Part shown: piece by piece, positions 33,764-45,900 of the stretch | How positions within the stretch are numbered: the first letter of the stretch is position 1 | Layout: each line of letters opens with the position of its first letter | Assembly (NCBI GenBank): GCA_004362315.1 | Contig: SNWL01000004.1 | Coordinates: forward strand, 620,001-684,000 | Length of the DNA: 64,000 nucleotides | Reading direction: 5' to 3' | From: Mycobacterium sp. BK086 | GTDB taxonomy: Bacteria > Actinomycetota > Actinomycetes > Mycobacteriales > Mycobacteriaceae | Notes under the pieces: generated by a model | Seen by the model: only the letters and a program-made list of their open reading frames with translations | Databases searched by the model: none | What the model was told of the DNA's origin: nothing | Position numbers and translations under genes: made by a program

Positions 33764-35650
33764 CTAGGGCGTGATGATGTTGAAGCTCGGATCGGGCTGA
33801 TCCAGCGCGCCGAGCAGCGACTGCAACGCTTGCGGATCACCGCTGGTCTCCAGGCCGGGTGAGGTGAAATCGCCTGCCGCGGCGGCTAATAGCCGCAACT
33901 TGGTGACCAGCCCGATGGTGGCGGTCGCGGTTGACTCATCGGCCGGGCACTGCCGGTAGACCAGCACCCCGTTGCGCAGTGTGAGCCGGTAATTTGTGCC
34001 GAGATCGGCGAACGTCACGTCGAGTGCGATATCGAGATCCCATGCGCGCGGCCCGTTTACGCTGATCGCCAGCACGTCGAACATCTGCTCCGGCGTGAGC
34101 TGAGCCAGCAGCGTGGTCGGCGACACCTGCGTCGGTGTGCCGAAGTTCCCGTCCCGCAGCTCGGTGGACCCGGACAGGAAGAAATTGCGCCACGTCGCGC
34201 ACTCGGCGCCGTACGCCATCTGCTCGAGGGTGTCCGCGTAGAGCTCCCTGGCACCGGCATGATTCTCGTCGGTGAAGATCGCGTGATCGAGAAGAGTTAC
34301 CGCCCAACGGTAGTCACCTGACTCGGTGGCAGTCCGGGCCAGTTCGACCACCCGGTCGATACCGCCCATGGCCTCGACGTAGCGGGGCCCGATCGCCTCT
34401 GGTGGATGCGCCCACAACCGGGCGGGGTTGCCGTCGAACCAGCCCATGTAGCGCTGGTACACGGCTTTGACGTTGTGGCTGACCGATCCATAATAGCCGT
34501 GGGCGTGCCACGCCTTGTGCAACGCGGGCGGCATTTGGAAGCCCTCGGCGATCTCGATGCCGGTGAAACCCTGGTTGAGCTGGCGCAGCGTCTGGTCGTG
34601 CAGATAGGCGTACAGATCACGTTGCAGGGAAAGGAATTGGACGATGTTGTCCTGTCCCCAGGTCGGCCAGTGATGCGAGGCGAACACCACGTCGGCGCGG
34701 TCGGCGAACGTGTCGATGGCCTCGGTGAGATAGCCTGCCCACCCGTGCGGGTCGCGGACCAGGGCACCGCGCAGCGTCAGCAGATTGTGCAGGTTGTGCG
34801 TCGCGTTCTCGGCCATGCACAGGGCCCGGAACTTCGGGAAGTAGAAATGCATTTCGGCGGGCGCCTCGGTGCCCGGGGCCATCTGGAACTCGATCTCGAT
34901 ACCGTCGATGGTGTGCTTCTCACCGGTGGTGGTGATATCGATCGTCGGCACGATGATCGCGACCTCGCCGGTCGACGGCGTCTGCCCCAACCCGCAGCCG
35001 ACCTGGCCCTGCGGCCCCCGCTCGAGGACCGCCCCGTACATGTAGCCGGCCCGGCGGGCCATCGCGGTACCGGCGTAGACGTTCTCCTGGACCGCGTGCT
35101 CGGTGAACCCCTCCGGCGCCAGAATCGCGACCTTGCCCGCGTCCACGTCGGCCTGGGTGGTCACCCCGAGGACACCGCCGAAGTGGTCGACGTGGGAGTG
35201 GGTGTAGATGACAGCGACCACGGGCCGATCACCGCGGTGCGCGCGGTAGAGCGCCAGCGCGGCGGCGGCGGTTTCGGTGGACACCAGCGGATCGATGACG
35301 ATGATGCCGGTGTCGCCCTCGATGAAGCTGATGTTGGACAGGTCCAGCCCGCGCACCTGGTAGATGCCTTCGACAACCTCGTAGAGACCCTGTTTGGCAG
35401 CCAGTGTGCTCTGTCGCCACAGACTCGGATGCACCGACGTCGGAGCGTCACCGGCGAGGAATCCGTAGGCGTCGTTGTCCCACACCACCCGACCGTCGGC
35501 GGCTTTGACCACACACGGGGTCAGCGCACCGATGAAGCCGCGGTCGGCATCGGCGAAATCAGCGGTGTCCTCGAACGGCAGGGACGTCAGGTGCTCGGCG
35601 TGAGCGGCTTCGATGACGGCGGACGGCGGCTTCGGTTTCATACCTGCCAT
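33764..35650 (-). CDS. Alkyl sulfatase, metallo-beta-lactamase fold (SdsA1/BDS1-like)
   Basis: The 628-residue enzyme hydrolyses linear primary alkyl sulfates such as SDS to alcohols and sulfate. The zinc motif is THSHVDHFGG (H151, H153, D155, H156). Further ligands are in the AENATHNLHNL region, and FASHHWPTWG follows. A helical dimerisation domain and a C-terminal SCP2-like domain (about 500-628) complete the family's domain order. No signal peptide is visible, unlike secreted SdsA1. M. tuberculosis Rv3762c is the likely counterpart. Starts at 35650 or at the ATG four codons later. Confidence 0.93.
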   Translation of the reverse strand: MAGMKPKPPSAVIEAAHAEHLTSLPFEDTADFADADRGFIGALTPCVVKAADGRVVWDNDAYGFLAGDAPTSVHPSLWRQSTLAAKQGLYEVVEGIYQVRGLDLSNISFIEGDTGIIVIDPLVSTETAAAALALYRAHRGDRPVVAVIYTHSHVDHFGGVLGVTTQADVDAGKVAILAPEGFTEHAVQENVYAGTAMARRAGYMYGAVLERGPQGQVGCGLGQTPSTGEVAIIVPTIDITTTGEKHTIDGIEIEFQMAPGTEAPAEMHFYFPKFRALCMAENATHNLHNLLTLRGALVRDPHGWAGYLTEAIDTFADRADVVFASHHWPTWGQDNIVQFLSLQRDLYAYLHDQTLRQLNQGFTGIEIAEGFQMPPALHKAWHAHGYYGSVSHNVKAVYQRYMGWFDGNPARLWAHPPEAIGPRYVEAMGGIDRVVELARTATESGDYRWAVTLLDHAIFTDENHAGARELYADTLEQMAYGAECATWRNFFLSGSTELRDGNFGTPTQVSPTTLLAQLTPEQMFDVLAISVNGPRAWDLDIALDVTFADLGTNYRLTLRNGVLVYRQCPADESTATATIGLVTKLRLLAAAAGDFTSPGLETSGDPQALQSLLGALDQPDPSFNIITP

Positions 35651-35670
35651 CCTTGCCTAGAGCGCGGGGG

Positions 35671-37635
35671 TCAGGTCCAGAATCCGTTGAGCGGTTCGGC
35701 GTACTTGTCGTTGTTGGTCATCGTCGGCACACCGAGCGCATCCTCGATCGTGCGCAGCGTGCTGTAGTGGTCGTAGTGATCGGTGACGACGAACGCACCG
35801 CCCTTCATGCCACCAGCGCTGACCGCCAGCGGCGATGGGATCACGACGGTGACGACGTGGTTGCCCTCGTTACCGAAGCCAAGCGTGATGTTGTTGTTGT
35901 CCTCGTCGAACGTGATGATCAGCACCGACTTCGTGGTCTTCCAGACGTCAGAATTCATGATCGTCGGCACGTTTTCCGCGAGGAACTGGTCGAGCGCTGG
36001 GACGTTGTACTGGTGGCGCGGATCGATCTGCGAGAACGCGAAGTGCGCCACGCCCGCCAGGGTGTCGACGGGGCCTTCACCGTTGGAGTCCTCGTCAGCG
36101 GCGAACCACACGAAATTCGGTGTGGTGGCGTCCGATTGGAGATCGGTGGCCATCTGCGTCAACGGGAACACGTGCGCGGCGGCGTAGGCCTGGTTGTCGC
36201 CGATTCCGGCGAACGCCGGCCACGGGGTTTGGTCCGTCGAATAGTTCGCCGTCGACTGCAGCGGCTGGCCTGGCGTCATGCCCTGCGCGTAGGCCGCCCA
36301 CGTCACCCCGGCGTTGTCCATGGTGAAGGCCAGGTTGTTCGGGTCGTTGATGCACACCGAATCGCAGTTGTAGGTCTTGCCGTAGACCTGGCCGCCGGCG
36401 ATCGCGTAATAGTTCGGCAGGCTGGGATGGGTCACGGCGTAGTAGTTGTTGGCGAGCCCGTAGCCGTTGATCAAGCTGTTCAGGAACGGCGCGTTGGGGC
36501 TTCCGACGATATCGCTGTAGCCCTTGTTCTCCATGTAGACCAGGAACACGTGATCGAGCGGCTGAACATCCGACACCGGCGGTGACGGGTCTGGCGGGGC
36601 GGCCTGAGCGGTCCCGATGCTGAAGGACAGGTTATCGGCGTAGGCGTTGTTGAATCTGGCGGTGAAACCGATCACGACCGGATTCAGGTCGTGCATGGTG
36701 AGCGTGACGACTGCGCTACGCGTGCCCACCGGGACCGTGCCGGTCGTGGTGCGCTGGCGGAATCCGGTCTGTCCCAACCGATCCAGGTTCGACACCGGAC
36801 CGATGGTCGAACTACCGAGGTAAAGCTGGTTCTGGTCGAGGAAGGTCACTTTCACCGTAGCGAAGGACGGGTCGAGCAGGTAGCCGCCAAGGTATCCGTT
36901 GAGATTGAATGGCACTGTGCCGCTGTCGATGTCAGCACTGGAAGCGCTGAGGTCCACCGTCTGGGTGAGCGCGGACGTGGCTACGTCGCCGCCACTGAAG
37001 AATTGGTTACCACCACCGGGCGGCGCAGCGTTGACACCTGGGAACGACACGATCGCAGGAAGATTCGGCCATGCGAAGCTCAAACCCACCGGCCACGCGT
37101 TGCGGAGCTCACCATACTTGACCACCGTCGGGGTACCGGTCGCCGTCCACCCGGGCACGCTGACCGCGCTGTTTCCGTAGCCGGCGGTATCGCCGAGTTC
37201 AGCGCCCGCATTCGTCAGCAGGTTGGGACCTGTGACGGGGAGCGCGGCGGTCGTGACCGCGCCCGCCTTCGCGATACCCGTGATGCGGCGCAACTCGTTG
37301 CCCGCATAGGCCAGCATCGACGAGATGGTCGCCGGCGTAGGCGGCGTGCCATCGCCGAGGAGCGCACGCAGGTGAACGCTGGGAAGTCGCTGTGAAGCCG
37401 AAAGTTGCTGAGGCTTGCCTAATTTCGCGGCCGACGGCCCTGCCGCCAAACTGGGTGTCGCTCGGTGCGACTTGCCCACTGCCACCGGTTTTGGCTTAGT
37501 CGCCGTGCTCTCCGAAGCGGCCGACGAGTTCGACGGCTGGGCATCCGCGACGCACGGCGTGCTCGCCAACCAGGAACCGATTCCGAGGGCTACCGCGAGT
37601 GCCCCGACCCTGCCGATGTGTGCTGCATTGCCCAT
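35671..37635 (-). CDS. Secreted phosphoesterase (PF04185-type) with N-terminal linker module
   Basis: From ATG 37635 (GGGAG about 8 bases upstream) the product is 654 residues. Order: signal peptide (about 10-30), Ser/Thr/Lys/Ala-rich linker, a helix (SSMLAYAGNELRRITG), a beta-sandwich domain (about 140-345) that begins NLLTNAGAELGD and resembles carbohydrate-binding modules, then a phosphoesterase domain. The latter has DHVFLVYMENKGYSDI, HPSLPNYYAIAGG, ITFDEDN and TDHYDHYSTLRTIEDALGVP, the metal-binding and catalytic elements of acid phosphatase/phospholipase C-like enzymes. It would act at or beyond the cell wall on phosphate esters or phospholipids. Confidence 0.88.
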   Translation of the reverse strand: MGNAAHIGRVGALAVALGIGSWLASTPCVADAQPSNSSAASESTATKPKPVAVGKSHRATPSLAAGPSAAKLGKPQQLSASQRLPSVHLRALLGDGTPPTPATISSMLAYAGNELRRITGIAKAGAVTTAALPVTGPNLLTNAGAELGDTAGYGNSAVSVPGWTATGTPTVVKYGELRNAWPVGLSFAWPNLPAIVSFPGVNAAPPGGGNQFFSGGDVATSALTQTVDLSASSADIDSGTVPFNLNGYLGGYLLDPSFATVKVTFLDQNQLYLGSSTIGPVSNLDRLGQTGFRQRTTTGTVPVGTRSAVVTLTMHDLNPVVIGFTARFNNAYADNLSFSIGTAQAAPPDPSPPVSDVQPLDHVFLVYMENKGYSDIVGSPNAPFLNSLINGYGLANNYYAVTHPSLPNYYAIAGGQVYGKTYNCDSVCINDPNNLAFTMDNAGVTWAAYAQGMTPGQPLQSTANYSTDQTPWPAFAGIGDNQAYAAAHVFPLTQMATDLQSDATTPNFVWFAADEDSNGEGPVDTLAGVAHFAFSQIDPRHQYNVPALDQFLAENVPTIMNSDVWKTTKSVLIITFDEDNNNITLGFGNEGNHVVTVVIPSPLAVSAGGMKGGAFVVTDHYDHYSTLRTIEDALGVPTMTNNDKYAEPLNGFWT

Positions 37636-37707
37636 GACCCGTACTCCCGCCACCCGATCCATCAGATGGTACGAAGTACGGGCCCTGCGCGGACCGTTAT
37701 TGACGGC

Positions 37708-39606
37708 TCAGTTCGGCGCGCTCAGGTCGTAGACCTCGGTGCCGCCGATGTCCTGGGCGCTGAAGTGCTGCTGCACCCACTGCGTGATCTGGCTGCCGGA
37801 GCCGGAGTCACCGCCCGGTCCGCCACCGTGTCCGCCGCCGGGACCGCTGCCCGCGATGAAGTAGCGGACCTGTCCACTGGCGACATAAGCCTGGAACTGA
37901 TCCAGTGTCGGCGAGTTGTCGCCGCCGCTGAATCCACCGATCGACATGATCGACGTGCCGGTGCGCAGCTCCAGGCTGCCCGCGACGTGTGACCCGACAG
38001 TTGCTGCGGCCCAACGATTATCAGCCTTTGTGAGCATGCCTTTCAACTCGGTGTTGTCGGATGCCTGCTGCCCGCCCGGGCCGCCGGGACCACCGAATCC
38101 GAAGCCCCCGCCCGCGCGGGCCGGACCGGACGTCGGGATACCGCCGCCGTGGTTACCGGCGATCGTCTCCACGGTGTAGGCCGCGGTGGCGCCCAGACCG
38201 AACAGCAAGCCCGCCGCGGCGAGCGCGACCGTCCACCGGCCGAGACGATGTGCCCCCGCCAGCAGCACCGCGGTCACCAGGATCGACCCGATCAACACCA
38301 CCCAGCGCAACCACGGCAGCCAGTCGGGGGTGCGGTCGAGGAGGATGAAGTTCCACACCCCGGTCACCACGAGCATGACGCCCAGCACCACCCGAGACGT
38401 CACAAACTGCTTGCCACGCCACAGTTCTCGCACACTGATGCCGAGTACCGCGCCGATCGCCGGCGCCAGGGCAATCGTGTAGTAGGGGTGCATGATCCCC
38501 TTCATGAAGCTGAACACCACGACAGTGACCACCAGCCAGCCGCCCCACAGCAGCAGCGAGGCGCGAGTCCGGTCGGTGCGCGGTGCACGTCGGGTGAACC
38601 ACAGCCCGGCGATCAAACCGATCAGCGCGGCGGGCAGCAGCCAGGAGATCTCGGTGCCCATCGACTCGCCGAACATCCGGGTGATCCCAGTGGATCCGCC
38701 GAACATCGGTGAGCCACCCATGCCACCGGGTCCGCCTCCGGAATCCGAGCTGCCGCCGGGATTCCCGTCACCCCCGAACACTCGACCCAAGCCGTTGTAG
38801 CCCAGGGCGAGCTGCAGCAGGCTGTTGTTGGTCGAGCCGCCGATATAGGGCCGAGAATCGCTGGGCCACACGCTGACCAGGGCCAGATACCAGCCGGCCG
38901 ACACCACGATCGCCACCAGACCGACCGCCAGATCGCGCAGCCGCAGCCACACACTGCCCGGCACCGCGACCAGCACGACCAGAGCCAGCGCCGGCGTAAC
39001 CAGCAGGGCCTGCAGGAGTTTGGCCAGGAACGCGAACCCGATGGCGACACCGGCCAGGGCGATCCAGCGGGTGGATCTGCCGTCCAGCGCGCGGATCAGG
39101 CAATAGCCGGCGATCACCATCAGCAGCACCAGCAGTGCGTCGGGGTTGTTGAAGCGGAACATCAACGCGGCCACCGGCGTCAGCGCCAGCACCGCACCGG
39201 CCAGCAGGCCGGCTCCGTACCCGCTGACCCGGCGGACCGCGCCGTAGATCAGTGCGACGGAGCCGACCCCCATCAGGGCTTGGGGCACCAGCATCGACAA
39301 CGTGCCGAAGCCGAAGATCCGCCCGGACAGCGCCATCACCCACAGGGCGGCGGGCGGCTTGTCCACGGTGATCGCGTTGCCGGCGTCGATTGACCCGAAC
39401 AGCAAGGCTTTCCAGCTCTGCGTGCCGGCCTGCACGGCCGCCGCGTAGTACTCGTTGGCCCAGCCAGCGGCATCGAGACCCCACAGGTAGAGCGCGGCGG
39501 TCACCGCCAGTAGCGCGAACAGCGCGGGACGCGCCCACCGCGGCCGCACTACGGGCGCCGGCTCCGCCGGAGTAACCAATGTCGGCCTTTCCTGCAAGGT
39601 GGTCAT
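37708..39606 (-). CDS. ArnT-like membrane glycosyltransferase (GT-C), second copy
   Basis: The ATG at 39606 overlaps the stop of the GT2-GtrA gene (ATGA); 632 residues. About eleven membrane helices follow a short cytosolic N-terminus. The first outer loop (LDAAGWANEYYAAAVQAGTQSW) and AITVDKPPAALWVMAL match PMT_2/ArnT-type transferases that use polyprenyl-phosphate sugars. A Gly-rich insert (about 283-305) precedes the later helices, and a soluble extracytoplasmic domain (about 510-632) ends the protein. It is clearly a paralogue of the protein at 40892. It probably glycosylates an envelope component. Confidence 0.9.
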   Translation of the reverse strand: MTTLQERPTLVTPAEPAPVVRPRWARPALFALLAVTAALYLWGLDAAGWANEYYAAAVQAGTQSWKALLFGSIDAGNAITVDKPPAALWVMALSGRIFGFGTLSMLVPQALMGVGSVALIYGAVRRVSGYGAGLLAGAVLALTPVAALMFRFNNPDALLVLLMVIAGYCLIRALDGRSTRWIALAGVAIGFAFLAKLLQALLVTPALALVVLVAVPGSVWLRLRDLAVGLVAIVVSAGWYLALVSVWPSDSRPYIGGSTNNSLLQLALGYNGLGRVFGGDGNPGGSSDSGGGPGGMGGSPMFGGSTGITRMFGESMGTEISWLLPAALIGLIAGLWFTRRAPRTDRTRASLLLWGGWLVVTVVVFSFMKGIMHPYYTIALAPAIGAVLGISVRELWRGKQFVTSRVVLGVMLVVTGVWNFILLDRTPDWLPWLRWVVLIGSILVTAVLLAGAHRLGRWTVALAAAGLLFGLGATAAYTVETIAGNHGGGIPTSGPARAGGGFGFGGPGGPGGQQASDNTELKGMLTKADNRWAAATVGSHVAGSLELRTGTSIMSIGGFSGGDNSPTLDQFQAYVASGQVRYFIAGSGPGGGHGGGPGGDSGSGSQITQWVQQHFSAQDIGGTEVYDLSAPN

Positions 39607-40847
39607 TCTGCGTCTCCCACAGTCTGGCCGGTGCGACGGGGGTGGAACACCCAGCCACGCAGCAGCACGAAGCGGACCACGGTGGCCATCAGGTTGGCCG
39701 CGATCAACACCAGCAATTCGATGACTCGGGGCGGCTCCCCGAGGGTGTGCAGCAGTGCCAGCGCGCCGCTGGTCAACGCCAGTCCGATACCGAAGACGAA
39801 GAACCCTTCGAACTGCTGGCGCGCGACGCCGGTGCGGCCACGCACCCCGAAGGTGTACCTCCGGTTGGCCGCGGTGTTCGCGATCGCGGTCACCAGCAGG
39901 GCCACCAGGTTGGCGCCCTGTGCGCCGATCGGGCGCAGCAGCAGGAACAGCAACAGGTAGGCCAACGTGCACGCGATGCCGATGGCGGCGAACCGCACAC
40001 CCTGGTTCAGCAGAGACTTCGGCGCGCCGGCCTGGTTGCCGAACTGGGCGCCGATTGCCTGCACCGGAATCTGTCCGGACCCGAAACCCTTGAGCAAGCG
40101 CGCGATTCCCTTCAGATCGGCGACGGCGGTGGACACGATGTCGACCCGGCTGTCCGGATCGTCGATCCAGTCGACGGGGACCTCGTGGATGCGCAGGCCG
40201 CTGCGTTCGGCCAGCACCAGCAGTTCGGTGTCGAAGAACCAGCCGGTGTCCTCGACGTAAGGCAGCAGCTCGGCGGCGACGTCGGCGCGGATCGCCTTGA
40301 ACCCGCACTGCGCGTCGCTGAACTTCGCGGCCAGCGTCGAGCGCAGGATCAGGTTGTAGCAGCGCGAGATGATCTCCCGCTTGGCTCCGCGCACCACGCG
40401 GGAGCCTCGGCCCAGCCGGGTGCCGATGGCCAGATCGGAATGCCCGGACACCAGCGGGGCCACCAGCGGAGCGAGCGCGGCCAGGTCGGTCGACAGATCG
40501 ACGTCCATGTAGGCCAGCACGGGCGCGTCGGAGGTCGACCACACCGCGTGCAGTGCGCGGCCACGACCCTTCTGCTCCAGCCGCACGCTGCGCACCTCGG
40601 GCAGTTCGGCGGCCAGCTCGGCGGCAACCTCCGGAGTGGCGTCGACGCTGGCGTTGTCGGCGATCGTGATGCGGAACGAGAACGGGAAGTCCTCCCGCAG
40701 GTGGCGGTACAGCCGGTGAATCGAGTCGGCCAGCGCGGCCTGCTCGTTGTATACCGGTACGACGACGTCGAGCACGGGCACGCCGCGGTCGGAGGCGATC
40801 AGAGCTGCGTTACGTCGGCGTGCCACGCGGACGTCGGTGATGGTCAT
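39603..40847 (-). CDS. GT2 glycosyltransferase fused to GtrA membrane domain
   Basis: In this 414-residue protein, residues about 25-260 form a GT-A glycosyltransferase 2 domain (LDVVVPVYNEQAALADS, metal motif AYMDVDLSTDL, FSDAQCGFKAIR). About 285-400 form four membrane helices of the GtrA family (RFAAIGIACTLAYLLLFLLL, NTAANRRYTFGVRGR). Such fusions make polyprenyl-phosphate-linked sugars and help flip them. The product would feed the two flanking ArnT-like enzymes, which use such lipid-linked donors. Its stop overlaps the start of the downstream transferase. Confidence 0.92.
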   Translation of the reverse strand: MTITDVRVARRRNAALIASDRGVPVLDVVVPVYNEQAALADSIHRLYRHLREDFPFSFRITIADNASVDATPEVAAELAAELPEVRSVRLEQKGRGRALHAVWSTSDAPVLAYMDVDLSTDLAALAPLVAPLVSGHSDLAIGTRLGRGSRVVRGAKREIISRCYNLILRSTLAAKFSDAQCGFKAIRADVAAELLPYVEDTGWFFDTELLVLAERSGLRIHEVPVDWIDDPDSRVDIVSTAVADLKGIARLLKGFGSGQIPVQAIGAQFGNQAGAPKSLLNQGVRFAAIGIACTLAYLLLFLLLRPIGAQGANLVALLVTAIANTAANRRYTFGVRGRTGVARQQFEGFFVFGIGLALTSGALALLHTLGEPPRVIELLVLIAANLMATVVRFVLLRGWVFHPRRTGQTVGDAE

Positions 40848-40891
40848 AAATCGATCGTCACCTGTGCCGGTGAGGGCCGAATTGGTGCTTG

Positions 40892-42688
40892 CTATGTGGC
40901 AGCTATGAATCCCTGCGACAGGTCGTAGACGGTGACGCCGTCGACCTCGCGGGACGTGAAATTGGCCCTCACCCAGCTCTGAATCCGCTCGGCGGCATCG
41001 CTGCCCGACCGGTTGCCGAACATGAATCCGGGCATTTCACTGCGCACGAACCAGTGGACGCGCCGCTGCGCGACATAGGACTGGAACTGCTCGAGGGTCG
41101 GGGCGGGGTCGGTGCCATTGAAGCCGCCGACGGCCATCACCGGCAGTCCGGTGGCGAGCTGATATCCGGCGGCGTTACTCGAGCCGACAGCCGCTGCGAC
41201 CCAGGTGAATTGGTCGGCGTCTTGCTTCAGCGCCGTGGTCAGTTCGGCACCGGGCGTCGGTGCGTCGAACATCCCGCCCGGCGGCCCACCGCGGCCGTTC
41301 GCGGGCCCGACAGAAGGCATCGCGCCACTGTGCGGAGCGGCGACGGTCGCCAGCGTGAATGCCACGGGTCCACCCAGAGCGGCGATCAGGGCCGCAGTGC
41401 CCACCGCGACGCCGACGCGCCGGGGCAATCTGCCCACCACGAGCAGCAGGAGCGCACAGCCGATGGAAACCACCGCGATGGCGACCCGAAGCCAGGGCAA
41501 CCACTGCGAATCACGTTGCAGCAGAACATAGGCCAGCACCGCGGTGATCGCGATCATCCCCGACAATGTGGTTGCCGCCCGGATATCCGCGCGCCGTCGC
41601 CACAGCAGAGTCGTACCGATCGCGAGGCCGCCGCCGATCGCCGGGGCCAGCGCCACGGTGTAGTACGAATGCAGAATGCCGTTGGCGTAGGAGAACACCA
41701 CCGCAGTGACCACCAGCCAGCCACCCCACAGCAGCAGCGCCGCCCTCGTGACATCGGTACGCGGCGCGCGCCGAGTGATCACCAGGCCGGCTATCACCGC
41801 GATGATCGCGGCGGGCACCAGCCAGGCGATGTAGGTCCCCATCTCGCCGCCGAACAGCCGAGCCCAGCCGGCCTCCTGGTTGAGGTTGCCGAGCCCGCCC
41901 GTCTCGTCACCGGTGAGACGGCCTAAACCGTTGTAGCCCAGAGCCAATTCGACGATCGAATTGTGTTGCGAACCGCCGATGTAGGGCCGCGCACTGGCGG
42001 GCCACAGCGCAACCAGCGCCAGATACCAGCCTGCCGAGACCACCAAGGCCCCCACCGCCGCGAGCAGCCGCACGAGCCTGCTCCGCAGGGTCACATCAGC
42101 CGCGAGCAGGAAGACCCCCGCCAGCGCGGGCAGCACCAGAAAGGCCTGCAGCATCTTGGCCAGGAATCCCACCCCGACCGCGACTCCGGCCAACGGCAGC
42201 CACCACCATGCCGCGTCGCGGTCGAGTGATCGCTGAGTGAAATAGGCGGCAACGACCAGCGAAAGCACCAGCAGCGCATCGGGATTGTTGAATCGGAACA
42301 TCAGCGCCGCCGCCGGCGTCAACGCCAGAACCGCCCCGGCGAACAGTCCAGCCCACGGGCCACTGACCCGTCGCACCGCGACGTACAACACCGCCACCGC
42401 AGCCACCCCGGCCACCGCCTGCGGCAGCAGGATGCTCCACGAATTGACGCCGAACAGCCGGGCCGACAGACCCGTCACCCAGAGAGCCGCTGGCGTCTTG
42501 TCGACGGTGATCGCGTTGGCCGCGTCGCTGGAGCCGAACAGCCACGCCGTCCAGCTCTCCGAACCTGCTTGGGCGGCAGCCGAATAGAACGCATTGGCCC
42601 ACCCGCTGGCGCCCAGGTTCCAGATGTAGAGCACGGCCGTCGCGAGCAGGAGTACCGCCAGCCCGCCATAATGCCGGGCGCGGATCAT
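40892..42688 (-). CDS. ArnT-like membrane glycosyltransferase (GT-C), first copy
   Basis: The 598-residue paralogue of the protein at 37708 has the same opening loop (NLGASGWANAFYSAAAQAGS), AITVDKTPAALWVTGL, MFRFNNPDALLVL and SARPYIGGSQHNS motifs, about eleven helices, and the same soluble C-terminal domain (GGFNGTDPAPTLEQFQSYV). It lacks most of the Gly-rich central insert. Its ATG overlaps the stop of the histidine kinase gene by four bases, linking glycosylation genes directly to the two-component system. The sugar and acceptor are unknown. Confidence 0.9.
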   Translation of the reverse strand: MIRARHYGGLAVLLLATAVLYIWNLGASGWANAFYSAAAQAGSESWTAWLFGSSDAANAITVDKTPAALWVTGLSARLFGVNSWSILLPQAVAGVAAVAVLYVAVRRVSGPWAGLFAGAVLALTPAAALMFRFNNPDALLVLSLVVAAYFTQRSLDRDAAWWWLPLAGVAVGVGFLAKMLQAFLVLPALAGVFLLAADVTLRSRLVRLLAAVGALVVSAGWYLALVALWPASARPYIGGSQHNSIVELALGYNGLGRLTGDETGGLGNLNQEAGWARLFGGEMGTYIAWLVPAAIIAVIAGLVITRRAPRTDVTRAALLLWGGWLVVTAVVFSYANGILHSYYTVALAPAIGGGLAIGTTLLWRRRADIRAATTLSGMIAITAVLAYVLLQRDSQWLPWLRVAIAVVSIGCALLLLVVGRLPRRVGVAVGTAALIAALGGPVAFTLATVAAPHSGAMPSVGPANGRGGPPGGMFDAPTPGAELTTALKQDADQFTWVAAAVGSSNAAGYQLATGLPVMAVGGFNGTDPAPTLEQFQSYVAQRRVHWFVRSEMPGFMFGNRSGSDAAERIQSWVRANFTSREVDGVTVYDLSQGFIAAT

Positions 42689-44187
42689 GATTCGGCCGAG
42701 CGGGGTAACCGCACCGTGAACTCGGTCAAGCCGGGCTTGCTGCGCAGTTCGATGCTGCCGCCGTGCGCGCGGACCACGGCCGACGCGATGGCCAGGCCCA
42801 GTCCGGTCGACCCGGCCTTGCGGGACCGCGAGGTGTCACCGCGGGCGAAACGCTCGAACACCTCGGACTGCAGTTCGGCCGGAATACCCGGCCCGTCATC
42901 GGCCACCCGCAGCACCGCCACGTCTGGCTCGGCATGCAGCGACAACGTCACCGATGTCCCCGGCGGGGTGTGGGTGCGGACGTTGGCCAAAAGATTGGCC
43001 ACCACCTGGTGCAACCGGGCGTCGTCGCCGGTGACATAGACCGGGTCGGGGGGCACGTCGAGGTTCCACTGGTAGTCCGGTCCGGCGATGTGGGCGTCGC
43101 TGGCGACGTCGGCCGACAGTCGGGACAGGTCGACCGGTTCGCGTTCCAGCGGACGACCCGAATCCAGCCGCGCCAACAACAAGAGGTCCTCGACCAGATG
43201 CGTCATCCGTTCGGCCTCCGACTCGACCCGGCTCATCGCGTGCGCGACGTCAGCGGGCACCTGGTCCCGGTTCCGTTGCGCCAGTTCGGTATAGCCGCGG
43301 ATCGCGGCGAGCGGGGTGCGCAGCTCGTGGCTGGCGTCGGCGACGAATTGGCGCACCCGGCTCTCGCTGGCCTGCCGGGTCGACAGCGCGGTCGCGATGT
43401 GGTCGAGCATGCGGTTGAGCGCCAAGCCAAGTCGGCCCACCTCGGTGTGCGGATTGGCATCGGATTCGGAAACCCGTACGGGGAGCGCAACTTCGCCGCG
43501 ATCCAACGGAAGATTGGCCACCTCACCCGCGGTCGCCACCACCCGGGTCAGCGGCGCCAGCGCCCGACGGTTGATCAGGATGCCGACGGTGGTGGCCACC
43601 GCCAGTGCGATCACCGCCACCACGCCGAAGATCAGCGCCACCCGCAACAGCGTCGCTTCGACGTTGTCCATACTCAGCCCGATGACCAAGGTCTCGCCGG
43701 TCAGCCGGCTGCGAATCGCCGTCACCCGATAGGTGCCCAGGCCGTCGAGATCGCGCGTCACGATCTTTCGGGTACCGGTGATCTGTGCCAGCTGGCTCAC
43801 CGCACCGGGCGGCACCGCAGCGCGATCCCCACCCGGGCCGAGCAATCCCGCGTCACTGATGGTTCCGTTGGTGATGACGGCCGCGACCATCCCAATCGGC
43901 TGGCCCGGTGCATCGAGGAATTCCGGGCCGGGCCCGGGCCGCGGCCACGGTGGCCGGTTGCCCCGCATCGGCGGTGGCAACGGCGGAGGCGGCGGCTCGC
44001 CGTAGATGATGGCCGAGCGGCGCGCGGTCTCGTGCAGCTGATTGTCGACCTGACCGACCAGATAGTGGTGCAGCGCCAGGATCGTCACCGCGCCGATGCC
44101 GAGACAGACCACCAACAACAGGCAGAGCTGACCGATCAGCAGCCTGGCGCTCAGCGACCAGGTGCTAGCTCGCAGGCTTGAGAACAT
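42685..44187 (-). CDS. tcrY: Sensor histidine kinase, TcrY-like
   Basis: A 500-residue kinase with membrane helices at about 16-43 and 181-206, and an extracytoplasmic sensor between them that contains a marked proline-rich stretch (about 65-90). A HAMP linker follows, then the dimerisation helix with phospho-accepting H287 in FVADASHELRTPLAAIRGYT and an ATPase domain (LLANVRTHTPPG, VADDGPGIP, TGLGLAIASAVVRAHGG). The start lies inside the 3' end of the regulator gene (23-base overlap). The name rests on similarity to TcrY/TrcS-type kinases and on the gene neighbourhood; I recall M. tuberculosis TcrY (Rv3764c) as slightly shorter. Confidence 0.85.
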   Translation of the reverse strand: MFSSLRASTWSLSARLLIGQLCLLLVVCLGIGAVTILALHHYLVGQVDNQLHETARRSAIIYGEPPPPPLPPPMRGNRPPWPRPGPGPEFLDAPGQPIGMVAAVITNGTISDAGLLGPGGDRAAVPPGAVSQLAQITGTRKIVTRDLDGLGTYRVTAIRSRLTGETLVIGLSMDNVEATLLRVALIFGVVAVIALAVATTVGILINRRALAPLTRVVATAGEVANLPLDRGEVALPVRVSESDANPHTEVGRLGLALNRMLDHIATALSTRQASESRVRQFVADASHELRTPLAAIRGYTELAQRNRDQVPADVAHAMSRVESEAERMTHLVEDLLLLARLDSGRPLEREPVDLSRLSADVASDAHIAGPDYQWNLDVPPDPVYVTGDDARLHQVVANLLANVRTHTPPGTSVTLSLHAEPDVAVLRVADDGPGIPAELQSEVFERFARGDTSRSRKAGSTGLGLAIASAVVRAHGGSIELRSKPGLTEFTVRLPRSAES

Positions 44188-44899
44188 AGCCCGCGCCGCG
44201 CAGCGTGTGGATCATCGGATCGCGTCCACTGTCGATTTTCTTGCGCAGGTAGGAGATGTAGAGCTCGACGATGTTGGACCGACCGCCGAAGTCGTAGCTC
44301 CAAACCCGGTCCAGGATCTGGGCTTTCGACAACACTCGCTTGGGGTTGCGCATCAGGAACCGCAGCAGTTCGAATTCGGTCGAGGTGAGCGCGATGGGTT
44401 CGCCGCCGCGGGTGACCTCGTGACTGTCCTCGTCGAGCACCAGGTCACCGACCACGATCTGCGCGCCGCTGTCCTCTTCGGTGACACCGGTGCGGCGCAG
44501 CAGCGCCCGCAGCCGCAGCACGACCTCCTCGATCGAGAAGGGTTTGGTGACGTAGTCGTCGCCGCCCGCGGTCAGGCCGGCGATGCGGTCCTCCAACGCG
44601 TCCTTCGCGGTCAGCAGGAGGACGGGAAGCTGCGGGTTCTGCTCACGCAGTTTGCGCAGGACGTCCAGACCGCTCATATCGGGCAACATCACGTCGAGCA
44701 CCACCGCATCCGGTCGCGAGCCGCGTGCCGCCGTAATCGCCGACGCGCCATCGGCGGCGGTGGCGATGTTCCAGCCCTCGTAGCGCAGCGCCATCGACAC
44801 CATCTCGGCGAGCACGGTCTCGTCGTCGACGACAAGAACGGTGATCGGGTTTCCGTCGGCTCGTCGCATCACTACACGTTCGGCCGCTGAAGAGGTCAT
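44165..44899 (-). CDS. tcrX: OmpR-family response regulator, TcrX-like
   Basis: The protein has 244 residues from ATG 44899, or 234 from the ATG at 44869, the length I recall for TcrX (Rv3765c). Receiver residues are D25, D26, phospho-acceptor D69 (VVLDVMLP) and K119. The winged-helix DNA-binding domain covers about 150-242 (ALTSTEFELLRFLMRNPKRV, LDRVWSYDFGG, RKKIDSG, IHTLRGAGYVL). It heads the operon tcrX-tcrY-glycosyltransferases and is divergent from the DUF5666-like gene at 45030. Confidence 0.87.
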   Translation of the reverse strand: MTSSAAERVVMRRADGNPITVLVVDDETVLAEMVSMALRYEGWNIATAADGASAITAARGSRPDAVVLDVMLPDMSGLDVLRKLREQNPQLPVLLLTAKDALEDRIAGLTAGGDDYVTKPFSIEEVVLRLRALLRRTGVTEEDSGAQIVVGDLVLDEDSHEVTRGGEPIALTSTEFELLRFLMRNPKRVLSKAQILDRVWSYDFGGRSNIVELYISYLRKKIDSGRDPMIHTLRGAGYVLKPAS

Positions 44900-44925
44900 G
44901 TACTCCAGTATGCGAGCGCGAATTA

Positions 44926-44939
44926 GCCATCCCTATGGC
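44926..44939. promoter_or_regulatory. Inverted repeat in the tcrX / 45030 divergent promoter region
   Basis: GCCAT-CCCT-ATGGC is a perfect five-base-arm inverted repeat 27 bases upstream of the tcrX-like start. A regulator binding site for autoregulation is plausible for this position; nothing further supports it. Confidence 0.3.
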
Positions 44940-45029
44940 ATTGCTATGCGCCAGCTGTGAAACGTCGCGCACAGACCCCGCTGATCGCGCACACAGCGAA
45001 CACCCAGGTTCGGTGCCCACCGTGGTGGC

Positions 45030-45500
45030 ATGAGTGACCAACAGCAACCCGTGTGGGGTGCTCCCACAGACCACCCGAAGACGTGGTCAACCCGCACGAC
45101 GGTGGCGGCCGTCGGCATCGCCGCCGCGCTGGCCGCCGTCGGTGGCGTGGTGGTCTATGCCGCCACCGGCGGTAGCGAAGGGCAAGGGCACGCCGGCGGC
45201 CCGCCGGGCTGGGGCGGGCCCGGTGGTCCCGGCGGCTTCCAGCGGACGCTGCACGGCCAAAACGTTGTCTCCGACGGTGAGGGCGGCTTCAGCACCGAGC
45301 TGACCCAGACCGGCAACGTCACCGCCGCCTCCGACACCTCGGTCACCGTGCACAGTCAGGACGGTTTCAGCCAGACCTATGTACTCGACGCCGACACCCG
45401 AAAGCCCGCACAGCCCCTGCAATCCGGTGAGCAGGTGTCGGTGCGGGCGACCCAGCAGGGCGGCGTGGCAACAGCCACGACGGTGATGCCCGCCAGATAA
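45030..45500 (+). CDS. Membrane-anchored protein with DUF5666-like domain
   Basis: The 156-residue protein has a cytosolic N-terminus (about 1-22), one membrane helix (TTVAAVGIAAALAAVGGVVVYAA, about 23-45), and a Gly/Pro-rich stretch (GGPPGWGGPGGPGGF). The outer beta domain (about 75-154) carries GNVTAASDTSVTVHSQDGF and LQSGEQVSVRATQQGG, the pattern of DUF5666/OB-like small domains. It is divergent from tcrX and therefore a candidate target or accessory of that system. Function unknown. Confidence 0.8.
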   Translation: MSDQQQPVWGAPTDHPKTWSTRTTVAAVGIAAALAAVGGVVVYAATGGSEGQGHAGGPPGWGGPGGPGGFQRTLHGQNVVSDGEGGFSTELTQTGNVTAASDTSVTVHSQDGFSQTYVLDADTRKPAQPLQSGEQVSVRATQQGGVATATTVMPAR

Positions 45501-45507
45501 TTTTTCG

Positions 45508-45900
45508 ATGGGCTTCTACGAGGTCATCGAGACGGTCGGCAAGGGGATCGACGCCGCCGGCGTCGCCGTGATCGCGATCGGCGCGCTGATTTCGGCGGCC
45601 GGTGTGATCCCTCGACTCAAGACCGGGCAGGCCTACCTGGCGTTTCGCCAACAGCTCGGCCGCTCGATCCTGCTGGGTCTGGAGCTGCTGGTGGCCGCGG
45701 ACATCATTCGCACCGTGGCGGTGACGCCCGACGCCCGCAGTGTCGCCGTGCTGGCTGGCATCGTGCTGATCCGAACGTTCCTGAGCTTCTCGCTCGAATT
45801 GGAGATCACGGGTTACTGGCCGTGGCAGAAAAACCGCCAGAAGCCAGCCACGCCTGACCCCGTCGCGCCGACGCCCGGGACAGCCACGCATCCGCAATGA
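45508..45900 (+). CDS. DUF1622 membrane protein
   Basis: The 130-residue protein has three membrane helices (about 14-36, 50-70, 78-95) and the DUF1622 pattern: FYEVIETVGKGIDAAGVAVIAIG, FRQQLGRSILLGLELLVAADIIRTV and VLIRTFLSFSLELEITGYWPW. The C-terminal 24 residues are Pro/Thr-rich and outside the family, and this tail is encoded where the gene overlaps the convergent YjbR gene. It starts 7 bases after the preceding stop and is probably cotranscribed with it. Function unknown. Confidence 0.87.
   Translation: MGFYEVIETVGKGIDAAGVAVIAIGALISAAGVIPRLKTGQAYLAFRQQLGRSILLGLELLVAADIIRTVAVTPDARSVAVLAGIVLIRTFLSFSLELEITGYWPWQKNRQKPATPDPVAPTPGTATHPQ

What the first reader, a model, noticed from the sequence alone, without database searches (positions are those of the whole stretch)
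37708..45500. A two-component system fused by translation to an ArnT-like envelope glycosylation operon
The tcrX-like and tcrY-like genes, two paralogous GT-C transferases and a GT2-GtrA enzyme lie in one direction. Start/stop overlaps are 23, 4 and 4 bases, and the only gap is 44 bases, so sensing and sugar transfer are made together. GT2-GtrA fusions make polyprenyl-phosphate sugars and ArnT-type enzymes use them, which forms a complete donor-to-acceptor pathway. The divergent gene at 45030 encodes a membrane-anchored DUF5666-like protein that could be the acceptor or a modulator. The tcrXY pair of M. tuberculosis is not known to me to be linked to glycosyltransferases, so this may be an undescribed stress-controlled envelope modification.
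Basis: partly seen in the sequence, partly recalled or inferred. Interest (0 to 1): 0.7.

Follow-up and report, generated by a model that had tools for sequence, protein, structure and literature searches.

The report
Stress-sensor operon with sugar-transfer enzymes
In this mycobacterium a sensor-regulator gene pair of the TcrXY type and three genes for predicted sugar-transfer enzymes form one tight run that likely lets the cell decorate its surface with sugars under stress, while many relatives keep the sensor pair and its predicted control site without the enzymes beside it.

Summary
Confirmed: RR, HK, YkcB-type GT-C, GT2-GtrA and a second YkcB-type GT-C lie head to tail (overlaps 23, 4, 4; gap 44). 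The link is conserved: GT2-GtrA occurs at 76 places in 55 of 118 genus genomes, and 63 of 76 have an RR-HK pair just upstream on the same strand. The TcrX-type regulator is in 109 of 118 genomes; of 105 readable loci 51 have the enzymes, 49 do not, 5 end early. Of 57 enzyme-free loci, 41 keep the alkylsulfatase neighbour and 36 have an LpqH-type gene behind the kinase, as 0 of 51 enzyme-bearing loci do; loss is likelier than gain. A predicted operator, three CAYAG boxes at 11-base steps, precedes the regulator in 50 of 50 enzyme-bearing and 43 of 48 enzyme-free loci. A related site faces the DUF5666-like gene, and one-mismatch sites lie 34-35 bases before small proline-rich membrane proteins, whose likely M. 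tuberculosis counterparts are published, hexosylated TcrX targets. The enzymes are of the known multi-component transmembrane glycosylation kind. Cotranscription, binding, signal, sugar and acceptor are untested.

The parts
44165..44899 (-). OmpR/PhoB-type response regulator, TcrX-like (244 aa)
   Evidence: 81-100% identical in 109 of 118 genus genomes
42685..44187 (-). membrane histidine kinase, TcrY-like (500 aa), proline-rich extracytoplasmic loop; overlaps RR by 23
   Evidence: M. simulans counterpart named TcrY (P0176)
40892..42688 (-). GT-C2, YkcB-type membrane glycosyltransferase (PMT_2 + YkcB_C); overlaps HK by 4
39603..40847 (-). GT2 fused to GtrA/DPMS membrane domain, predicted polyprenyl-phosphate-sugar synthase with flippase-like part
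   Evidence: dolichol monophosphate mannose synthase 5mlz E 9.7e-11
37708..39606 (-). GT-C1, second YkcB-type membrane glycosyltransferase; overlaps GT2 by 4
44933..44959 (-). predicted RR operator: three CAYAG boxes at 11-base steps (CACAGC-CATAGC-CATAG)
44903..44912 (-). CATACTGGAG, promoter -10-like element shared by close relatives, 20 bases after the boxes
   Evidence: function inferred
44970..44997 (+). predicted divergent operator facing the DUF5666-like gene (CACAGA-CTGATC-CACAGC, 11-base steps)
45030..45500 (+). divergent DUF5666-like protein (hydrophobic helix, Gly/Pro linker, beta domain), predicted membrane-anchored
35671..37662 (-). PLC-like phosphoesterase, possible sixth gene of the run (gap 45); in 9 of 69 enzyme-bearing rows
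33764..35650 (-). alkylsulfatase (MBL + Alkyl_sulf_dimr + Alkyl_sulf_C), possible seventh gene (gap 20); also follows tcrXY in 41 of 57 enzyme-free loci

Best explanation
Five contiguous genes encode a TcrXY-type sensor-regulator pair and a set of predicted membrane glycosylation enzymes that are likely transcribed together and would decorate an envelope acceptor with sugar under stress. Proposed steps: (1) the kinase senses an envelope signal, likely acid as published for M. tuberculosis TcrXY; (2) the phosphorylated regulator binds three 11-base-spaced boxes between its own gene and the divergent DUF5666-like gene and switches on both sides (the operator is shown as conserved sequence, binding is inferred); (3) the GT2-GtrA enzyme makes a polyprenyl-phosphate sugar and its GtrA part turns it to the outer face (inferred from family and fold); (4) the two YkcB-type GT-Cs pass the sugar to extracytoplasmic acceptors (inferred), best guess the co-regulated small membrane-anchored Gly/Pro/Ser/Thr-rich proteins; (5) in many relatives the enzymes were likely lost while regulator and operator stayed.
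Against: No transcript, activity or glycan data. 8 of 76 GT2-GtrA places count as without RR/HK. Overlaps are not general. 5 of 48 enzyme-free loci lack the operator. One-mismatch operator sites are partly chance: in the own genome 6 sites (2 exact) against 1 for the reversed pattern, in 21 genomes 27 against 12. The three relatives with a site before a proline-rich gene may be close kin. DUF5666 is not found upstream in 23 of 66 GT+ rows, and independent pairs give p 0.06-0.25. In M. tuberculosis the authors attribute secreted hexosylated proteins to Pmt (PMC7287972), so such proteins do not need YkcB there. No M. tuberculosis sequence was held beyond printed peptides; orthology rests on gene order and on the M. 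simulans name. 16 of 57 enzyme-free loci show no alkylsulfatase (5 have under 4 kb downstream), so shared place is not shown for all.
Confidence: 0.62

Rival explanations
1. Same regulated operon, but the acceptor is a cell-wall polymer or lipid (arabinogalactan, lipoarabinomannan, glycolipid), and the co-regulated small proteins are modulators only.
For: The members with a stated target in the passages of PMC8035078 that I saw modify polymers (WTA, LTA, rhamnan, pellicle); the authors speculate that the YkcB target in B. subtilis is a cell-wall component (PMC7961091).
Against: Nothing direct; likely counterparts of the co-regulated proteins are hexosylated, and fold neighbours include protein glycosyltransferases, but fold does not tell acceptor.
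Confidence: 0.35
2. The enzymes are housekeeping passengers: an old operon without stress control of sugar transfer, the transferases being expressed mainly from internal promoters.
For: HK/GT-C2 and GT-C2/GT2 gaps reach 128 and 124 bases in some loci, room for promoters; some places have GT2-GtrA without a TCS (8 of 76).
Against: In the window the spacings are -4, 44 and -4; the sigma-70 scan shows no minus-strand promoter-like site between HK and the GT-C1 start (it covers mycobacterial promoters poorly).
Confidence: 0.12
3. The enzymes were inserted behind tcrXY several times rather than lost.
For: Counts of changes do not tell gain from loss; the tree is a quick one with a long outgroup.
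Against: The same genes in the same order and direction in both main clades and in Antrihabitans; parallel divergence with the TCS.
Confidence: 0.08

Closest known systems
Multi-component transmembrane glycosylation systems (GT-A + GtrA flippase + GT-C; CsbB-GtcA-YfhO, YkcC/YkcB of B. subtilis)
   Same: GT2 enzyme, GtrA-type membrane part and GT-C enzyme; the GT-Cs match YkcB_C (PF24878) over cut-off; ykcBC of B. subtilis is also under a two-component regulator, YclJ (PMC7961091)
   Different: GT2 and GtrA are one protein here; two GT-Cs; the regulator genes are in the same run; no teichoic acids in mycobacteria (recalled)
TcrXY of M. tuberculosis (Rv3765c/Rv3764c)
   Same: Same RR-HK arrangement; M. 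gastri and M. simulans loci read YjbR, RR, HK, LpqH-type gene, alkylsulfatase, M. gordonae and M. asiaticum have the same frame; published autoregulation and proline-rich targets fit the operator sites
   Different: No transferases behind the kinase in those relatives; the M. tuberculosis sequence itself was not compared
ArnT (lipid A aminoarabinose transferase)
   Different: YkcB_C C-terminal domain, no ArnT model among the NCBIfam hits, no lipid A in mycobacteria (recalled)
Pmt protein O-mannosyltransferase
   Same: GT-C fold; weak NF058602 match of GT-C1
   Different: 33 bits against a cut-off of 800

Membership tests
Multi-component transmembrane glycosylation system | GT2 enzyme of the polyprenyl-phosphate-sugar synthase type | tested here: met
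   PF00535 78 bits; 5mlz dolichol monophosphate mannose synthase E 9.7e-11 and ArnC-type entries; family level only, activity not tested
Multi-component transmembrane glycosylation system | GtrA-type membrane partner | tested here: met
   PF04138 54.7 bits at 285-401 of the same protein
Multi-component transmembrane glycosylation system | GT-C enzyme | tested here: met
Multi-component transmembrane glycosylation system | transfer of the sugar to an extracytoplasmic acceptor | not testable with these tools
   needs biochemistry
TcrXY | closest RR/HK with shared gene neighbourhood | tested here: met
   RR 81-100% in 109 of 118 genus genomes; alkylsulfatase downstream in 41 of 57 enzyme-free and 15 of 51 enzyme-bearing loci; M. 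simulans HK of L297 named TcrY. Not compared with M. tuberculosis itself
TcrXY | autoregulatory site before tcrX | tested here: met
   three-box site in 93 of 98 distinct-genome upstreams; binding not tested; identity with the published M. tuberculosis site not compared
TcrXY | acid response | not testable with these tools
   published for M. tuberculosis (PMC10883919)
ArnT | NCBIfam match at family level | tested here: not met
   no ArnT model among hits at E 0.001
Pmt protein O-mannosyltransferase | NF058602 over cut-off | tested here: not met
   33 of 800 bits, GT-C1 only
DUF5666 (PF18914) | Pfam gathering score | tested here: not met
   21.8 bits against 27

The most novel reading that the evidence does not exclude
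TcrXY began as the switch of a self-contained surface-protein glycosylation programme: one three-box operator turns on the sensor pair, the lipid-sugar maker, two YkcB transferases and their own acceptors (DUF5666-like and small proline-rich membrane proteins). Slow-growing mycobacteria, M. tuberculosis among them, later lost the transferases and kept the switch and the acceptors.
Probability: 0.22. Interest if true: 0.82.

Novelty: new variant of a known kind. Interest (0 to 1): 0.6.

Why it matters
It gives a studied but poorly explained two-component system (TcrXY) a likely ancestral output, envelope glycosylation, in environmental relatives where it can be tested. It offers a concrete operator model, three 11-base-spaced boxes ending about 32-35 bases before start codons, where the published screen reported no motif consensus for downstream targets (PMC10883919). 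It adds a further case of YkcB-type transferases under two-component control, next to YclJ and ykcBC in Bacillus, and so helps the search for the unknown acceptor of this large enzyme family.

Tried and rejected
Rejected: ArnT and Pmt membership; translational overlap as a general trait; DUF5666 absence as independent proof of a tie to the enzymes (3-5 informative pairs in each of 200 pairings, p 0.06-0.25). The DUF5666 model is confident only at about 73-156; its hydrophobic helix lies in a stretch under pLDDT 50, and no PDB match is under E 0.001, the best being CusF at 1.9e-3. The genes between HK and GT2 in 14 loci of the looser kind gave no acceptor candidate; some are HIT-like, a name from recall. 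Promoter and terminator scans were 3 against a shuffle mean of 1.1, and 6 against 5.3. Literature: ten searches; among the titles and abstracts listed (at most 20 a search; searches had more hits than listed) I saw none that links tcrXY or an actinobacterial TCS to YkcB/GtrA enzymes; only open-licence PMC text is held. In the 179-row operator count some genomes appear twice (unnamed and named copy), and L262, with rearranged enzymes close by, is labelled GT-; one search recounts distinct genomes only. The counts use the doubled rows. Eight further upstreams were dropped because a motif used as anchor was missing.
Full report
What is there. Searches confirm a minus-strand run of five genes: RR 44165-44899, HK 42685-44187, GT-C2 40892-42688, GT2-GtrA 39603-40847, GT-C1 37708-39606, with overlaps of 23, 4 and 4 bases and one gap of 44. 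Pfam gives PF00072+PF00486, HisKA+HATPase_c, PMT_2+YkcB_C, Glycos_transf_2+GtrA_DPMS_TM and PMT_2+YkcB_C. The divergent gene at 45030 matches DUF5666 below the cut-off. A phosphoesterase and an alkylsulfatase follow on the same strand at gaps of 45 and 20 bases. The own genome holds 6 YkcB_C places and 2 strong GT2-GtrA places.

Is the link real? In 118 genomes of the genus, GT2-GtrA (E 1e-60 or better) is found at 76 places in 55 genomes. With up to 8.5 kb fetched on each side, 63 of 76 have RR and HK homologues upstream within about 4 kb on the same strand, 2 have a divergent pair, 2 have one of the two, 1 is at a contig edge and 8 count as none (the listing shows a divergent pair also at L066, which the script counts as none). 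At 70% identity or more the figure is 50 of 59; of the 17 below, 13 belong with a paralogous cassette whose RR is about 57% and HK about 44% identical, and the own genome has one (L002). A YkcB-type GT-C stands within 3.5 kb in 69 of 76. Protein distances of RR, HK, GT2, GT-C1 and GT-C2 run in parallel (r 0.81-0.89; permutations made for all but GT-C2). Outside the genus, 121 genomes of the family group (own genus included) gave matches in 78, and 20 loci from other genera were read: 14 have RR and HK upstream on the same strand, but mostly with 0.6-2.8 kb between HK and GT2; the tight form is one Antrihabitans-type locus, one more locus has the same parts rearranged, and 5 show no pair close by. 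At class level 59 of 148 genomes match, and of 27 loci with 1.5 kb flanks 13 have an HK homologue directly before GT2.

The same regulator without the enzymes. The RR is found at 81% identity or more in 109 of 118 genomes. For the 57 of these without a GT2-GtrA match I read the flanks. Of 105 distinct-genome loci in which the upstream could be anchored, 51 have the enzymes, 49 do not and 5 end too early. Of the 57 enzyme-free loci 41 have the alkylsulfatase downstream, 25 YjbR upstream, and 36 an LpqH-type gene within 1.5 kb after HK, 35 of them convergent; of 51 enzyme-bearing loci 15 have the alkylsulfatase and none the LpqH-type gene there (Pfam PF05481 was checked for L189 only). Of 80 named loci, 60 have no transferase beside tcrXY and 59 of these have the alkylsulfatase; M. 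gastri, gordonae, asiaticum, colombiense and simulans are of this kind, and the M. simulans kinase is named TcrY by NCBI (P0176). M. kyorinense and M. fragae show HK, GT2, GT-C1, alkylsulfatase, an intermediate form; Antrihabitans stalagmiti has the full five-gene set with the DUF5666-like gene. In a quick tree of 104 RR+HK rows, thinned for near-copies, enzyme presence needs 12 changes; 37 enzyme-free rows lie in a clade with 17 enzyme-bearing ones, 8 in a clade with 34, and Skermania and Antrihabitans (enzyme-bearing) outside both. I infer repeated loss; the tree has SH-aLRT support only and a long outgroup. M. tuberculosis itself was not in hand. Its locus numbers in two papers (Rv3763 LpqH, Rv3764c TcrY, Rv3765c TcrX) fit the same order.

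The operator. Close relatives share CACAGC-N5-CATAGS-N5-CATAGG or variants before the RR. Scored as three CAYAG boxes at 11-base steps, 50 of 50 GT+ and 43 of 48 GT- distinct-genome upstreams reach 14 or 15 of 15; block shuffles reach 13 once in 960 and not 14. Below 14 are L148, L150, L175, L176 and L187. On the other strand a second site, CACAGA-CTGATC-CACAGC, faces the DUF5666-like gene; two boxes 22 bases apart score 9 or 10 of 10 in 20 of 40 DUF5666-bearing rows, 6 of 29 other GT+ rows and 0 of 103 GT- rows, against 6 of 200 shuffles for the first group. In the window the sites end 33 (27-base site) and 32 (28-base string) bases before the start codons. The own genome has two exact sites and four with one mismatch, against one for the reversed pattern. 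One of the four lies 34 bases before a proline-rich protein with a hydrophobic stretch (P0241, L356), and in three relatives a one-mismatch site lies 34-35 bases before homologues (L359-L361), for whose nearest matches UniRef gives 'Proline rich protein'. The other own-genome sites lie 81 and 67 bases before L354 and L355 proteins, or were not followed (L357, L358). The C-terminus of the L361 protein shares GGPGQVPSSV with the Rv3706c peptide printed in PMC7287972. This matters because PMC10883919 (abstract, passages and section 9 read) shows TcrX binding to the Rv3706c and Rv3705A promoters but reports no motif there. The three relatives may be close kin, and one-mismatch sites are frequent by chance (27 against 12 for the control in 21 genomes).

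The DUF5666-like protein. The model has a low-confidence helix at 22-34, a disordered Gly/Pro linker and a beta domain at about 73-156 (pLDDT about 77-92) with only weak matches, best CusF. With a profile it is found upstream in 43 of 66 GT+ and 0 of 99 GT- rows with 700 bases or more of upstream sequence (in L037 and L338 it lies further off and counts as absent), but the independent-pair test is not significant.

Verdict. A conserved, likely stress-controlled envelope glycosylation operon of known enzyme kind in a new arrangement, whose regulator survives without the enzymes in many relatives. Shown: gene order, families, fold model, conservation, operator sequence. Inferred: cotranscription, RR binding, acid signal, sugar, acceptor, direction of evolution.

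Noticed in passing
L356 (own genome C2:550403-550429) and L359-L361: One-mismatch TcrX-type operator 34-35 bases before small proline-rich proteins with a hydrophobic stretch; likely counterparts Rv3706c/Rv3705A are published TcrX targets and listed with hexoses. Could be the motif that the published screen did not find.
   Followed up: partly
33764-37662: PLC-like phosphoesterase and alkylsulfatase follow the transferases on the same strand with gaps of 45 and 20 bases; the run may be a seven-gene operon. The phosphoesterase occurs in 9 of 69 GT+ rows.
   Followed up: partly
L002 (own genome C2:260500-271500): A second, paralogous TCS + GT2-GtrA + YkcB-type locus (GT2 60%, RR 57%, HK 44% identical).
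   Followed up: partly
L354 (own genome C4:157760-157786): The only other exact three-box site of the own genome, 81 bases before a 443-aa protein without Pfam match.
   Followed up: no
L148, L150, L175, L176: In these loci (L148, L150 and L176 group with Mycolicibacter in the tree) the three boxes before the regulator are gone although the CATACTGGA element stays, so autoregulation may be lost there.
   Followed up: no
L262: In one other-genus genome GT2 lies directly before RR-HK while GT-C1 and GT-C2 are divergent, beyond the DUF5666-like gene: same parts, shuffled order.
   Followed up: no
45508-45900: DUF1622 membrane protein directly behind the DUF5666-like gene, followed by a ThrE-type exporter; seen beside tcrX in the window's wider clade, also in some loci without DUF5666.
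   Followed up: no
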